A stretch of 64,000 bases of DNA from positions 1 through 64,000 of IMG/VR virus record IMGVR_UViG_3300042691_019380; one strand, 5' to 3'. Source of the DNA: a virus. Positions within the stretch are counted from its first letter, which is position 1. Every line of letters begins with the position of its first letter. Of this stretch, positions 19,373-27,485 are shown piece by piece. The translations under genes were made by a program, and so were the position numbers. Under the pieces are notes generated by a model. It was given only the letters and a program-made list of their open reading frames with translations. It was not told where the DNA came from and made no database searches.

Positions 19373-19783
19373 TTACGGAGCGAACTGCTGAACCCAGTAC
19401 GCTCGTCCGTCAGAACCGATGAACCCAGCCACGCCGATGCGGCGGTAGCCACGGTTCAGAATGTTGGCGCGATGCCCAGGCGAGGCGAGCCACACGACAA
19501 CGGCGTCCGTTGCCGTCGGCTGTCCGGTCGCCACGTTCTCGGCCACCTTGTCGTTGCTGTGATGGAGAGACCGTTCCCGAGCCATCCGCAGTGCGTGTCG
19601 CCTCGCTGACGACATGAGTCGGCAGTCGATGACAAGTTCCGGCGAGCCGTTCTTGACGCGAGCCTCGTTCGTCTTTGCGACGATCTGAGCCTCGCCAGCC
19701 GTCAGGGCTCCGCAGGATTCTTCGGCCAGAGCCGGAAACGAGACCAGGGCCAGGAGCAGGGCCGCTACGGTACGCATATCCAT
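19373..19783 (-). CDS. Secreted CAP/SCP domain protein
   Basis: 136 residues. A signal peptide (A-A-L-L-L-A-L-V-S-F-P-A-L-A) is followed by a bacterial CAP domain: I-V-A-K-T-N-E-A-R-V, H-A-L-R-M-A, H-H-S-N-D-K-V-A-E-N and S-P-G-H-R-A-N-I-L-N. The H and E cavity residues are kept. CAP proteins act outside the cytoplasm. Start ATG 19783 lies inside a T-T-G-T-A-T-GGATAT match to the recurrent motif. A role in host envelope attack or superinfection exclusion is possible. Confidence 0.8.
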   Translation of the reverse strand: MDMRTVAALLLALVSFPALAEESCGALTAGEAQIVAKTNEARVKNGSPELVIDCRLMSSARRHALRMARERSLHHSNDKVAENVATGQPTATDAVVVWLASPGHRANILNRGYRRIGVAGFIGSDGRAYWVQQFAP

Positions 19784-19797
19784 ACAAATACCTCGCG

Positions 19798-20205
19798 TTA
19801 CGAGTTCTCGATCCAGTCGTCGCCGCGACGCTCGTAGAGTCGAACGTCCCGACAGCCGACGCTGCGTGCGATCTCCACGCAGTACGGCGCGAACACGGCC
19901 AGCGGCAGATGCGGGTTGATCGAGCCGTCCGCAACGAGCATCGCTGCTGCGACGCGAGCCAGACCGCGACGACGATGCGAGTCGAGCGTGAACCCTTCCA
20001 GGGTCTGCTGCGATCGCCATTCGTGCGTTGCTGCCCAAGACACGATCCTCCATGACCCGTCCCGAACGATCGCGATCGGTGTCGCCGACCCGTGTCGGCT
20101 TTTCACTTCTCGCTGGAACTCGCTTCCGTGCTTCGTGAGACCCTCGACGATCGTCCGTGCGTCGAGGTCTGAGAGCCTTCCAACGGTGGTGGTTATCGCT
20201 TCCAT
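19798..20205 (-). CDS. GNAT-like acetyltransferase
   Basis: 135 residues. The acetyl-CoA pyrophosphate loop appears as S-H-R-R-R-G-L-A-R-V-A-A-A-M-L (Q/R-x-x-G-x-A) after strand T-L-E-G-F-T-L. Upstream strands W-R-I-V-S-W-A-A-T and C-terminal L-Y-E-R-R-G-D fit the fold. Substrate unknown. Start ATG 20205 is preceded by GGAGAAG. Confidence 0.65.
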   Translation of the reverse strand: MEAITTTVGRLSDLDARTIVEGLTKHGSEFQREVKSRHGSATPIAIVRDGSWRIVSWAATHEWRSQQTLEGFTLDSHRRRGLARVAAAMLVADGSINPHLPLAVFAPYCVEIARSVGCRDVRLYERRGDDWIENS

Positions 20206-21454: not shown

Positions 21455-21973
21455 CTACGTTCCGATTCTGTACTCCGGAGCCACTCTCTGATTGTCCGCC
21501 CAAGGCCTATTCAGGCTGTCGATCTCAACGTACTTCTCGCTCTGATATGTCCCGACAAGAGACGCGATCACGTCGTCGGCCGAGATGAATCCGAGAATCT
21601 CGACCGTCCGATACTCGTTGTCGGCCGTGCGAGCAGCCCAGACGATCTTGCCCTTGTCCTTCGCGCGGACCTTCACGGCGTTGCCAGTGCGAACACGGCG
21701 GACTTCAATGTCATCGCCGACGTCGGCGAGGTGCTTGTACTTGCCGTGATCGCTTCGATGCCACACGCCAGCGTGCCAGTACTTGCCCGTGTGCTTCGCC
21801 ACGGCGAGTTCGCAGATCGCAGCCGCGACCTGGGCATTGCGGTCTTCTTCCATGCGACTGCGGTCGTAGTACTCGGCGTCAGGGACGCCCCAGTTTGCCG
21901 TAAAGCGGCCAGCGCCGACGGCGAATGCCCGCTCGTATTCCCACGGCATGATGGTGATGATTGGGCTGCTCAT
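21455..21973 (-). CDS. Conserved phage protein (W-E-Y-E-R-A family)
   Basis: 172 residues from ATG 21973 (ATGA overlap). I-M-P-W-E-Y-E-R-A ... Y-D-R-S-R-M-E-E-D-R-N-A-Q-V-A-A-A-I-C-E-L-A-V-A-K-H and I-E-V-R-R-V-R-T are found in a widespread but unnamed phage family. The fold is mixed α/β and a nuclease-like role has been guessed, but no catalytic set is evident to me. Confidence 0.65.
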   Translation of the reverse strand: MSSPIITIMPWEYERAFAVGAGRFTANWGVPDAEYYDRSRMEEDRNAQVAAAICELAVAKHTGKYWHAGVWHRSDHGKYKHLADVGDDIEVRRVRTGNAVKVRAKDKGKIVWAARTADNEYRTVEILGFISADDVIASLVGTYQSEKYVEIDSLNRPWADNQRVAPEYRIGT

Positions 21974-22464
21974 GGAATCCCCGGAAGCGAGTTCTTTATT
22001 TGCGAGACGCTTCTCATTGCTTTCAGCAAGCATCCCACGGCCTTTGACGGACAGCGACCGTCGAGCCGTTCGCGAATGTCGCCAAGGATTTCGAGAATCT
22101 CGTCGACCTGCTCAGCGCAGATCAGCGCGTCGCTGATTGGGAGCAAGTCCTCCTTTCTGATTCTTCCAGAAGGCATATTCAGAAGTTCGCAGCCTTGAGA
22201 GGCCCGCTCTCTGATCCAGTGCAACTCGCGCGCTCGTAGCAAGTCTCTTGGGATGCCAGTTTCGATCAATCGGACTTCGTGTTTCAGGCCAGCCTCTTGG
22301 AAGAGTTCTGTTTTCCAAAGTTCAAGTTCACGATTTTGATAGCCCCACGTCATGTGCTGCCGCTTTCGTCTCTCGAAGTTCAGCGTGCATCCGACATAGC
22401 GGCTCTGACCATTTCTTGGGTCTATGAGTTCATAAACATCACCAGTTCCGTCTTTTTTGCTCAC
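21970..22464 (-). CDS. GIY-YIG nuclease
   Basis: 164 residues. The N-terminal domain has V-Y-E-L-I-D ... S-R-Y-V-G-C-T (the GIY and YIG strands), R-R-K-R-Q-H and E-L-H-W-I (catalytic Glu region). The C-terminal 70 residues are an unknown helical extension. Free-standing GIY-YIG genes among methyltransferase and HNH genes are usually homing endonucleases. Confidence 0.8.
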   Translation of the reverse strand: MSKKDGTGDVYELIDPRNGQSRYVGCTLNFERRKRQHMTWGYQNRELELWKTELFQEAGLKHEVRLIETGIPRDLLRARELHWIRERASQGCELLNMPSGRIRKEDLLPISDALICAEQVDEILEILGDIRERLDGRCPSKAVGCLLKAMRSVSQIKNSLPGIP

Positions 22465-23758: not shown

Positions 23759-24236
23759 TCCCCTTTTTCGACAGCCATGCAGCCGCCGCCTCGGCAACGA
23801 CCGTTCGCTTCGCCATCTTCACAAGATCGCGAACGTACCACTCGTTGCCAGAGTTCCAGACTTCATCGAATGTCTTGCCAGCGAACCGACCCTCGCGAAG
23901 AACAAACTCCTTCGCGGACTTGTCAGCCTCGTCGAGCAGGCCCGGTATCGGATCAATGAGCCATGACGTCATGCACCACCAGCCGCACATGACTCGCCAC
24001 TTGGTCTCGCCCTTGGTCTTTACTATGTCCACGAGGTCAACGATCGGAAGTCCGCAAGTCTCGCACGAGACATGACCCTCGATGGACGCCAAGTACCCGA
24101 CCGGCTGCTCGGGCGGCGGCTCCCAGGCACGGGGCTGCGAAGACTCTGCGGCCTGCTTCTTACGGCTGGGTTTCTTCTTCTTGCCGTCCTCGTCCTGAAC
24201 GGGAGCGATCTCGAACAGGAGGTCATTTTTCGCCAT
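23751..24236 (-). CDS. Zinc-binding protein with ExoX-like C-terminal motif
   Basis: 161 residues from ATG 24236. A K-K-K-K basic, proline-rich lead is followed by C-E-T-C and V-M-C-G-W-W-C, a probable zinc site. The end G-R-F-A-G-K-T-F-D-E-V-W ... Y-V-R-D-L-V resembles the short domain found C-terminal to some exonucleases (ExoX-like C). No exonuclease core is present. Possibly a DNA-replication accessory protein. Confidence 0.5.
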   Translation of the reverse strand: MAKNDLLFEIAPVQDEDGKKKKPSRKKQAAESSQPRAWEPPPEQPVGYLASIEGHVSCETCGLPIVDLVDIVKTKGETKWRVMCGWWCMTSWLIDPIPGLLDEADKSAKEFVLREGRFAGKTFDEVWNSGNEWYVRDLVKMAKRTVVAEAAAAWLSKKGID

Positions 24237-24975
24237 TGATTGCCCCTTCGATCCACTCTCGGTACTCGCTGATTCGCGTGTGAGCGGACTCTTCGCCTCG
24301 CCTCGCCATCGGGCTTCTTCCGGCAACCATCAGGAACGAGTTGATTCCTGCCAGTTCGTTCCCCAGGAACAAGCCGCCGCCTGAGTCTCCGGAGGCGATC
24401 AAGAACTCCAGTTCCGTTTTCCGATGCGAGTCCACCGAGCAGATAAGCAAACCTCGCTCTGCTCGGTCGACGACGTTGCTGCCTGCTCGCTTCTGACCGT
24501 CGTAGATCACTCCGCCCGTGTCAAACGTGCCTGTGAGGCCGTATCCAGAGATGCTGGCAACTTGCCCAGGCTCGTCTTTTAAGGCATGAAGCGGCGGGTA
24601 GAAATCCAGCGAGAACGGACGCTTCGCTTTGCAGACTGCCAAGTCCACTGACTTCTCGTTGGCGAAGTCAGGGTGAGTCGCAACAGACTCGATGTCGTGC
24701 CTCTCGCCGTTGTCGCACAGGACGAAATGCTCCTCGCAGCCGTCGACGACATGGGCGGCTGTCACGACACACCTCGGCGAGACAATTACGCAACTCGCCG
24801 ACTGCTCGACGCCTGTCTTGGCGTTGCGGCAGACGATTCTGGCGACGCACTTGAACTTGTCGCCGTACTCGCGGTGCTTGGCGTCGTCTTTGCGAGGGTC
24901 GATCGTGCCAGCAAGGGCCACGATGGCAATCGCGATAAACGGCACGGCAGCCAGCCCTCGGCGTGGATGACTCAT
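24223..24975 (-). CDS. Secreted trypsin-like serine protease
   Basis: 250 residues from ATG 24975 (ATGA overlap with the helicase). A signal anchor (A-A-V-P-F-I-A-I-A-I-V-A-L-A-G) precedes a chymotrypsin-fold domain: V-T-A-A-H-V-V (His), V-D-L-A-V-C (Asp) and S-G-D-S-G-G-G (Ser), all present. Several cysteines may form disulfides. It should act in the periplasm or outside, an unusual cargo next to replication genes; it may degrade host surface protein, block superinfection, or aid lysis. Confidence 0.85.
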   Translation of the reverse strand: MSHPRRGLAAVPFIAIAIVALAGTIDPRKDDAKHREYGDKFKCVARIVCRNAKTGVEQSASCVIVSPRCVVTAAHVVDGCEEHFVLCDNGERHDIESVATHPDFANEKSVDLAVCKAKRPFSLDFYPPLHALKDEPGQVASISGYGLTGTFDTGGVIYDGQKRAGSNVVDRAERGLLICSVDSHRKTELEFLIASGDSGGGLFLGNELAGINSFLMVAGRSPMARRGEESAHTRISEYREWIEGAINGEK

Positions 24976-27485
24976 AGCGGCAACTCCATTCGGTGGCGAT
25001 ACCCGTCGTCGACGAGCATGAAGTCCTGCTTGGCCCTCGTGACCGCCACGTAGGCGACCCGGCACTCTTCGTCGTGCAGTTCCGGCAGGGCATTTCTCGC
25101 CCTCTCGACGCTCGGACTCGTGATCGACGACAAGATCACCGTGTCGGCTTCGAGGCCCTTGGCTCCGTGGATCGTCGAAAGACGGATCGGCGGGTTCGTT
25201 GCGATCTCTTCGCCGTAGCGAGTTGCCGTATCCAGCCAAAGCCGGGCACGGTCTGCTGCCTTGGCCTCGATCGCCAGATGCCAGCGACCTTCGGCAATGA
25301 GACCAGCCAGGGCTGGGGTCACGCCGATGAGTTCGTAGTCCTCCGCCACGGGGCGAATGAGGTCAACGTGCGACATCTTTCCAGACTTCCATGCCGTCTT
25401 TGTTCCCCGAACGAGCAGTTCTCCGAAATCTCCGCTCTTCACGGCGATCGCCTGGACAGCGTTTGCCCAGTCGTCGCCGGAGATCGTGCGGCCGTTCTGA
25501 AGGCCCCACAGGGCTGCGTATCCAGACAACGTAGACGAGCCGGACGTCTTGTCGATCCAGAGGTACGGAAGATTTTTGGCCTTCAAGATCAACTCGTACT
25601 CTTCGAGAGCGAACGCGCATCGGCCCAGGATAAGAGCCGAAGTGTTGGCAGACAGACGAGAGAGTGCCTCTTCGGCACTCCCCACGCGAGACACGGTTCC
25701 GTCGTGGCCTGCGTGCTGGATTTTGCGATCCCGATATCCCTTCGTCATCTGACGCAGGCAAGCCTCGCCGAGATCAAGCACTCGTCGCGGGCAACGGTAA
25801 CTCCGCTGCATCGTCGACTCTTGTGCCTCCCAGGACATGAAGTGCGTGTAGTCCCCACCCGCGAAACTGTGGATCGAGTTTCCAGTCACCACGCCGCCTT
25901 GGGTGACGTACGTGTGGTTCTGATGGACGTTCATGCTCCAAACTCGCGTTGCCTTGCCTGGGGGCAGTCTCCTGCACGAGACGATATCGACCCACTCGCA
26001 CTTCTTTTTCTCGCCCATCTTGGGCACGCGATGGATGCCGGGAATCAAGTTCGCGGCGTGAATGAGCCTGCTCGCCATTGGCCCATTCTTGCATCGGTCG
26101 GCCTTTCGGCACATTGGATGCTCGGGCGACAGGCAGTGCCCACGAAGACACTCTAATCCGTTTTTCGTCAGGTCTCCGAGCGAGTTGAAAACTTGCTCGA
26201 TGTACCCCTCGTCGAGGTTTGTCCTGACTCCGCACGGCGGACGAAACGTGACCTGCGGAATCCCGTATCGGCACGAGACGATTTGCTCGTAGCAACGAGC
26301 GTCGCGGTCAGTGTCGAAAATCTTGAGAATCCACGCCGCGCCGGCCGCCTCTTGGTTCATCCGCATCTTGAGGCGGAACGATCCGTTCTTTTCGCTTGGT
26401 TTGCCAGCAAAGACCTGAACAGTCCCGACCCTCCACCGGCTGCCTTTCGCCATGAGGTACGTGGCGTAAGTGCCCTTTCGGCCTCGGGTGCGGGCCACCC
26501 ACTTGTGGTTGTCCGTGCAGACGTGCTTCGTCCCGTCCGCAAGCGTGATCTCAATGAGGCTTGATGAATCGACTTCCCTGCTGGCAATCTCAAACTCAGA
26601 GCCGCTGCCGGGAAAGCGACTCTCCCTTCTGTTAAACGTGACGAGCCTGTCCACTGCTGGGTCGAGGTCTTCGATGTTCTTGTACCCAGACAACGTCAGG
26701 ACAGGAGTACCGGCTGGCTGGCACTGGTACGGGTCACCACAAATCCAGATTCGCTCGATGGTCGGACTGGCAGCGAGTCTCTTGCAGACCATGTCGACGA
26801 GAGTCGACGAGTCTTGAGCCTCGTCGATCGCCAAGACTCGGAGACCCTCTGGGACTTCCCCCTCGGGCTCGACCCTGTACGGCCCGTCGACGGTGTATCG
26901 GACACCGGCGAACTTGGCGATCACGTCCGTGAAGTCCAGCCTTCCCTGGGCTCGCTTGGCTTTCTCGTACTTCTCGATCGTGCGGCGGGCTTCGGAGATG
27001 GACGGCGTCTGCTCGCCGCACAGTTCCCATCGACTCAGGATCGCTGCGACGCTCGTCATCTTGCTCCGGGCGAGTTCCCAGGCTTTGAGGGCCTGCGGGA
27101 TCGACTGGTCGCCTCCCTCGCCAGCGATGTACTGCCGCTCGCCTCGGCCGTCGATGCGGGTGCTGATCACGCCGCCGACGGAATCCGAGACGAACTTGTC
27201 GCCGTCCTTGCCCTGGATCAACTGGCCCTCCTCGACGCCTGCCTGCTTGTAGGCGATCGCGTGCGCCGTCTTGAACCAACCGTGTCCAGTCAGGGCGTCG
27301 ACGTCGACGCCCCACTCTCCAGCGGCCCGCCCAGCGATCTCGGCCCTTCCCGCCCGTGTAAACGTGCAGAAGCCGATCTCGTGGACGCCCAGGCCCAGTT
27401 CTCGCCGGGCCGCAGACAGCCTGTCGAGAATCAGCCTTGTCTTTCCTGTGCCAGCCCCGCCAATCGCCCGTTCTACGTATGCCAT
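24972..27485 (-). CDS. UvrD-like superfamily 1 DNA helicase, interrupted by an intein
   Basis: 837-residue precursor; the spliced helicase would be 555 residues. Walker A is G-G-A-G-T-G-K-T (residues 8-15), Walker B V-L-A-I-D-E-A-Q-D, and motif III G-D-P-Y-Q is split from S-I-H-S-F-A-G-G by an intein (residues 255-536). Later motifs L-S-T-I-H-G-A-K-G-L-E-A and V-A-V-T-R-A-K are UvrD/Rep-type. I start at ATG 27485 after AAGGAGG rather than extending to 27536. Part of the replication module with the Prim-Pol gene upstream; probably a 3'-5' helicase for replication or recombination. Confidence 0.88.
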   Translation of the reverse strand: MAYVERAIGGAGTGKTRLILDRLSAARRELGLGVHEIGFCTFTRAGRAEIAGRAAGEWGVDVDALTGHGWFKTAHAIAYKQAGVEEGQLIQGKDGDKFVSDSVGGVISTRIDGRGERQYIAGEGGDQSIPQALKAWELARSKMTSVAAILSRWELCGEQTPSISEARRTIEKYEKAKRAQGRLDFTDVIAKFAGVRYTVDGPYRVEPEGEVPEGLRVLAIDEAQDSSTLVDMVCKRLAASPTIERIWICGDPYQCQPAGTPVLTLSGYKNIEDLDPAVDRLVTFNRRESRFPGSGSEFEIASREVDSSSLIEITLADGTKHVCTDNHKWVARTRGRKGTYATYLMAKGSRWRVGTVQVFAGKPSEKNGSFRLKMRMNQEAAGAAWILKIFDTDRDARCYEQIVSCRYGIPQVTFRPPCGVRTNLDEGYIEQVFNSLGDLTKNGLECLRGHCLSPEHPMCRKADRCKNGPMASRLIHAANLIPGIHRVPKMGEKKKCEWVDIVSCRRLPPGKATRVWSMNVHQNHTYVTQGGVVTGNSIHSFAGGDYTHFMSWEAQESTMQRSYRCPRRVLDLGEACLRQMTKGYRDRKIQHAGHDGTVSRVGSAEEALSRLSANTSALILGRCAFALEEYELILKAKNLPYLWIDKTSGSSTLSGYAALWGLQNGRTISGDDWANAVQAIAVKSGDFGELLVRGTKTAWKSGKMSHVDLIRPVAEDYELIGVTPALAGLIAEGRWHLAIEAKAADRARLWLDTATRYGEEIATNPPIRLSTIHGAKGLEADTVILSSITSPSVERARNALPELHDEECRVAYVAVTRAKQDFMLVDDGYRHRMELPL
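25878..26723 (-). other. Intein in the UvrD-like helicase (282 aa)
   Basis: Begins with Cys in C-Q-P-A-G-T-P-V-L-T (block A), has D-G-T-K-H-V-C-T-D-N-H (block B, T-x-x-H), R-V-W-S-M-N-V (block F) with N-H-T-Y-V, and ends G-V-V-T-G-N before Ser+1. The insertion point is the conserved helicase motif G-D-P-Y-Q | S-I, a functional site as expected for inteins. The penultimate residue is Gly, not the usual His. The centre (about 120 residues, including R-C-Y-E-Q-I-V-S-C-R-Y-G-I-P-Q) may be a homing endonuclease remnant; I see no LAGLIDADG. Confidence 0.88.

What the first reader, a model, noticed from the sequence alone, without database searches (positions are those of the whole stretch)
25878..26723. 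Intein at motif III of a UvrD-like helicase, with Gly instead of penultimate His
Seen: a 282-residue insert splits G-D-P-Y-Q from S-I-H-S-F-A-G-G, with block A C-Q-P-A-G-T-P, block B T-D-N-H and an end T-G-N followed by Ser. Known: inteins favour conserved active sites and most end His-Asn. A Gly-Asn end needs a compensated splicing mechanism or implies slow, possibly conditional splicing. The middle 120 residues may hold a decayed or unfamiliar homing nuclease.
Basis: partly seen in the sequence, partly recalled or inferred. Interest (0 to 1): 0.75.

Follow-up and report, generated by a model that had tools for sequence, protein, structure and literature searches.

The report
Phage helicase intein with GIY-YIG-like nuclease
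A phage DNA helicase gene carries an intein, a protein insert that cuts itself out; inside it sits a domain resembling GIY-YIG DNA-cutting enzymes, a type not known to me from the literature I could read as part of an intein, and related viruses show that the insert moves between genes.

Summary
It is an intein: a related phage helicase (L006, 87% identical) has the site empty to the codon, the predicted fold matches solved inteins, and C1, T70, H73, N282 and Ser+1 are present. The Gly-Asn end is real and lineage-wide (Gly codon varies synonymously) but not exotic: a mycobacteriophage intein with penultimate Gly splices completely and His slows it (PMC5050341), so slow or conditional splicing is not implied. 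The more interesting part is the middle. Residues 88-194 form a beta-beta-alpha-beta-alpha domain with Y89, R98, G100, R121 and E146 invariant across divergent relatives; fold and profile tests place it near GIY-YIG nucleases, not LAGLIDADG or HNH. A related virus (L029) has lost exactly this domain, leaving a 180-aa mini-intein. Intein and helicase histories conflict (p=6e-17), so the element has moved horizontally. Relatives: SPO1/CampHawk UvrD, Streptococcus phage methylases, cyanobacterial plasmid UvrD, Bacillota PcrA. Verdict: new variant of a known kind. Splicing and DNA cleavage are inferred, not shown.

The parts
26724..27485 (-). N-extein of the UvrD-like helicase (254 aa, ends ...ICGDPYQ)
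   Evidence: Pfam PF00580 and PF13361, PHROG 1967 over the whole 837-aa ORF
25878..26723 (-). Intein, 282 aa, CQPAG...VVTGN
   Evidence: Empty site in L006; Hint fold; annotated intein relatives SPO1 and CampHawk
26463..26723 (-). N-terminal half of the splicing (Hint) domain, residues 1-87, with Cys1 and block B T70-D-N-H73
   Evidence: Invariant C1, T70, H73; profile of relatives matches solved inteins at positions 1-78
26142..26462 (-). Nested GIY-YIG-like nuclease domain with its following helices, residues 88-194; signature Y89, R98, G100, R121, E146
   Evidence: Exactly this stretch is missing in mini-intein L029; model and Foldseek; hhalign
25878..26141 (-). C-terminal half of the splicing (Hint) domain, residues 195-282, with block F (His270) and block G (T-Gly281-Asn282)
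   Evidence: Profile of relatives matches solved inteins at positions 216-279; alignment
25881..25883 (-). Penultimate Gly281 codon (GGA; GGC in L004, GGG in L029)
24975..25877 (-). C-extein of the UvrD-like helicase (301 aa, begins SIHSFAGG; Ser+1)
   Evidence: Pfam PF13361; continuous with the N-extein in L006

Best explanation
The insert is a class 1 intein in a phage UvrD-like helicase. Cys1 and Ser+1 should splice it out of the precursor, restoring motif III, with Asn282 cyclising without a penultimate His (Gly281 instead), probably aided by block F His270. [quoted passage not shown] Shown from sequence: the intein boundaries, the empty site, a mini-intein lacking the nuclease, purifying selection, horizontal movement. 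Inferred: splicing activity, nuclease activity, and that this nuclease drives the movement.
For: Empty site to the codon in L006 and absence in L007-L014. Hint fold: AlphaFold pLDDT 86, Foldseek to solved inteins E 5.7e-5 and TM to target up to 0.82. Annotated SPO1 and CampHawk inteins at the same Q|S site. Middle domain: invariant Y89, R98, G100, R121, E146; strands and helices E-E-H-E-H; UvrC GIY-YIG domains at ranks 1, 2 and 5 in PDB; mostly GIY-YIG or homing nucleases in BFVD; hhalign to pooled GIY-YIG beats 200 of 200 column shuffles. Mini-intein L029 lacks exactly 107 central residues. Intein and extein site patterns conflict, 27:9 against 12:156, p=6e-17. dN/dS of the intein 0.10-0.16. 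Penultimate-Gly phage intein that splices: PMC5050341.
Against: No Pfam, NCBIfam or PHROG family recognises the window intein or its middle domain. Foldseek E-values of the middle domain to PDB GIY-YIG structures are weak (1.3 and above), and hhalign to single GIY-YIG subfamilies is not significant. The second Tyr of the GIY-YIG signature is Arg here. One copy (L002) has lost block F His270 as well as the penultimate His. The intein tree alone does not reject vertical descent (p-AU 0.10).
Confidence: 0.8

Rival explanations
1. The intein splices, but the central domain is an inactive relic, or an accessory domain of another fold; the horizontal movement came from ordinary recombination or from nucleases encoded elsewhere in the phage.
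For: GIY-YIG assignment is by weak-to-moderate similarity; Arg replaces the second Tyr; a free-standing GIY-YIG ORF exists nearby at 21970-22464; L029 keeps the intein without the domain.
Against: Signature residues are invariant across inteins of 26-32% identity; dN/dS of the stretch is about 0.1-0.2 within the lineage; BFVD hits other than intein relatives are dominated by GIY-YIG and homing nucleases.
Confidence: 0.15
2. The Gly-Asn end makes splicing slow or conditional, so the intein acts as a regulatory switch of the helicase.
For: The penultimate His normally assists Asn cyclisation (PMC5050341, PMC7765530); the change is fixed in the lineage.
Against: A phage intein with penultimate Gly splices completely and the His version is slower (PMC5050341). 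His270 is kept in five of six copies. No data here bear on rate.
Confidence: 0.08
3. The insert no longer splices and is a fixed extra domain of the helicase.
For: No Pfam intein match for the window copy; the penultimate His is missing; splicing has not been demonstrated.
Against: Precise empty site in L006, Hint fold, all class 1 residues except the penultimate His, purifying selection, and insertion inside catalytic motif III, where an unspliced insert should abolish activity.
Confidence: 0.03

Closest known systems
SPO1 gp34.33 and CampHawk UvrD helicase inteins (annotated)
   Same: Same insertion site (GD..Q|S of motif III), same CQPAG start, full-length homology at about 31-32%, same YLM...RVG...R...E middle domain
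   Different: They end His-Asn; their middle domain is not named as GIY-YIG in the annotation or in the CampHawk paper (PMC3868849)
Mycobacteriophage Bethlehem RDF intein (PMC5050341)
   Same: Phage class 1 intein with penultimate Gly; shown to splice
   Different: Different host protein; the endonuclease domains described in that paper are LAGLIDADG. No homology to the window intein was tested
AceL NrdHF class 3 split intein with an intervening GIY-YIG gene (PMC7891396)
   Same: Association of an intein and a GIY-YIG nuclease at the usual endonuclease insertion point
   Different: There the nuclease is a separate gene between two intein halves and the intein is class 3; here it is one continuous class 1 protein
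LAGLIDADG-bearing inteins such as PI-SceI and VMA inteins
   Same: Hint splicing domain with a nested endonuclease between blocks B and F
   Different: Nuclease family differs; the middle domain here is about 107 aa and not LAGLIDADG by prediction

Membership tests
Intein (class 1) | In-frame insert absent, to the codon, from homologous proteins | tested here: met
   L006 empty site; L007-L014
Intein (class 1) | Hint fold | tested here: met
   Model pLDDT 86; Foldseek to solved inteins
Intein (class 1) | Cys/Ser at position 1, block B T-x-x-H, C-terminal Asn, Cys/Ser/Thr at +1 | tested here: met
   C1, T70-D-N-H73, N282, Ser+1
Intein (class 1) | Penultimate His (usual, not obligatory) | tested here: not met
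   Gly281 in the whole lineage; exceptions that splice are published (PMC5050341, PMC7664689), so it is not a defining feature
Intein (class 1) | Protein splicing activity | not testable with these tools
   Needs expression of the precursor
GIY-YIG nuclease superfamily | GIY and YIG motifs, then Arg and Glu | tested here: inconclusive
   Y89, G100, R121 and E146 invariant, but R98 in place of the second Tyr; T5orf172 members fetched here also have Lys at that place
GIY-YIG nuclease superfamily | Three-stranded sheet with helices in GIY-YIG order | tested here: met
   E-E-H-E-H in the model; best PDB hits UvrC GIY-YIG, with weak E-values; BFVD hits mostly GIY-YIG
GIY-YIG nuclease superfamily | Sequence-profile similarity to known members | tested here: inconclusive
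   Pooled GIY-YIG: 0 of 200 shuffles reach the score; single subfamilies 8-13 of 200; Pfam gives no match
GIY-YIG nuclease superfamily | DNA cleavage | not testable with these tools
   Needs a cleavage assay
LAGLIDADG- or HNH-bearing intein | LAGLIDADG or HNH domain between blocks B and F | tested here: not met
   No such Pfam or PHROG match for the window intein; the predicted middle fold is E-E-H-E-H

The most novel reading that the evidence does not exclude
A widespread family of class 1 inteins (phage and Bacillota UvrD/PcrA motif III, phage DNA methylases, cyanobacterial and actinobacterial plasmid helicases) is mobilised by a GIY-YIG homing endonuclease nested within the Hint domain, a combination stated in 2006 as not found in inteins and for which no later report was found in the papers held here.
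Probability: 0.6. Interest if true: 0.68.

Novelty: new variant of a known kind. Interest (0 to 1): 0.55.

Why it matters
Nested intein endonucleases described in the papers read here are mostly LAGLIDADG, with an HNH case cited; a nested GIY-YIG domain would add another architecture and show that Hint domains have captured unrelated nucleases more than once. The viral set contains empty, full and nuclease-deleted states of one intein in related helicases, so the homing cycle can be tested directly. The Gly-Asn lineage, with a natural 180-residue mini-intein, is also a compact system for studying splicing without the penultimate His.

Tried and rejected
Pfam, NCBIfam and PHROG scans of the window intein alone found no Hint or nuclease family; relatives do match Pfam Intein_splicing. 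phmmer of the intein against PDB: nothing relevant. Profile of the middle domain against PDB sequences: only chance hits. A nine-sequence alignment was too diverse for a collection scan. Scans with the SPO1, cyanobacterial and RYC inteins found no viral relatives. First hhalign tests used whole-genome loci without reversing the minus-strand ones; they are discarded and replaced. T5orf172 (PF10544) in the window's own record: none. 'Decayed nuclease' rejected because the signature residues are invariant. The intein tree alone does not significantly reject vertical descent (p-AU 0.10); the claim of horizontal movement rests on the site-pattern contrast and the extein tree. [quoted passage not shown]

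Full report
Observation. The minus strand of 24975-27485 encodes an 837-aa UvrD-like helicase (Pfam PF00580 and PF13361, PHROG 1967) in a 92,855-base IMG/VR virus record. Residues 255-536 (25878-26723) are the insert described, with the ends and motifs exactly as stated.

It is an intein. A viral helicase 87% identical in its best segment, L006, reads LCGDPYQ|SIHSFAGG with nothing between, to the codon; eight further relatives are also uninterrupted. The AlphaFold model (pLDDT 86, 11-sequence alignment) matches solved inteins in Foldseek (best E 5.7e-5; TM to target up to 0.82). A profile of nine relatives hits solved inteins only with its two ends, positions 1-78 and 216-279. Full-length relatives at about 26-32% identity include the annotated SPO1 and CampHawk UvrD inteins at the same Q|S site, Streptococcus suis phage DNA methylases, a Providencia plasmid methylase ORF, Nostoc, Stanieria and Thermobispora plasmid helicases and Vibrio phage RYC. 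Two Bacillota PcrA-like helicases carry inteins of the same class at the same site.

Gly-Asn end. All copies of the window lineage (window, L002-L005, and the mini-intein L028/L029) end TGN, while every intein relative outside it that was aligned ends HN. The Gly codon is GGA, GGC or GGG in different lineages, and intein dN/dS is 0.10-0.16, so Gly is maintained and is not a sequencing error. The lineage also has one extra residue between blocks F and G, and His at position 270 in all copies but L002. Phage inteins with penultimate Gly are published: the Bethlehem RDF intein splices completely and Gly-to-His slows it; the authors note that a block F His can take over the role (PMC5050341). So Gly-Asn does not by itself suggest slow or conditional splicing.

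The middle domain. Across nine divergent inteins the invariant residues include Y89, L90, M91, R98, G100, R121, W131, A142 and E146, which parallels the GIY...YIG...R...E signature with Arg for the second Tyr. Modelled alone (residues 86-192), the domain gives E-E-H-E-H (pLDDT 82). Foldseek against PDB puts UvrC GIY-YIG domains at ranks 1, 2 and 5, although with weak E-values. Against BFVD, after three hits with E<1e-3 (a helicase, a methylase and an unnamed long protein, which I take to be intein-bearing homologues), 25 of the 28 functionally named hits in the top 50 are GIY-YIG, NUMOD or other endonucleases of the homing kind (my count). hhalign against 35 pooled GIY-YIG domains scores 18.6, a score that no column shuffle of 200 reaches; the alignment is co-linear and pairs Tyr, Gly and Glu. 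UvrC against T5orf172, both accepted members, scores 18.9 in the same test. Single subfamilies were not significant, and Pfam does not recognise the domain, so membership is probable rather than proven.

Modularity and movement. L029 (and L028, identical intein) carries a 180-aa version that lacks the 107 central residues present in L004, with splicing blocks intact: a natural mini-intein. Helicase sequence puts L004 with L006 (92-94% aa identity) and the window (85-89%), and L029 far away (60-65%); intein sequence puts L004 with L029 (82%) and the window's further off (74%). Informative sites are 27:9 in the intein against 12:156 in the exteins (Fisher p=6e-17). The extein tree rejects L004+L029 (p-AU 0.004); the intein tree favours it (bootstrap 91) without rejecting the alternative (p-AU 0.10). 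Thus the intein has crossed between helicase lineages; direction and date are unknown.

Mechanism. Best reading: class 1 protein splicing through Cys1, Ser+1 and Asn282, restoring motif III of the helicase; DNA-level homing by the nested GIY-YIG-like nuclease into empty motif III alleles such as L006. Splicing and cleavage are inferred.

Novelty. [quoted passage not shown] Later papers read here describe mostly LAGLIDADG in inteins (PMC5050341, PMC8966425, PMC8772380) and one GIY-YIG gene lying between the halves of a split intein (PMC7891396). No report of a nested one was found, but only open-licence papers were searched and at least one relevant paper was not held. New variant of a known kind.

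Noticed in passing
window 21970-22464 (-): Free-standing ORF resembling a GIY-YIG nuclease (PF01541 E 5e-4, just under the curated cut-off), a few kb from the intein.
   Followed up: partly
window 24223-24975 (-): Trypsin-like serine protease ORF directly downstream of the helicase (PF00089 E 8.5e-16), unusual in a phage replication region.
   Followed up: partly
window about 19373-19909 (-): Secreted-looking CAP/SCP-family protein (PF00188 E 7e-15).
   Followed up: no
L094, L095: Bacillota PcrA-like helicases (NCBIfam pcrA E below 1e-250) carry larger inteins of the same class at the same motif III Q|S site.
   Followed up: partly
L002 4001-6511: A near-identical copy of the window intein has block F His270 changed to Asn besides lacking the penultimate His.
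   Followed up: no
L017 479-2818: Vibrio phage GR11A 'hypothetical protein' contains an intein-like insert in a helicase (CVVEGT...RVHN) and then the start of a second one (CFPAGTKILL) before the ORF stops.
   Followed up: no
L018 about 2001-2400: Phage phiBsKO1-1 has an SPO1-like helicase intein whose reading frame is interrupted in the deposited sequence.
   Followed up: no
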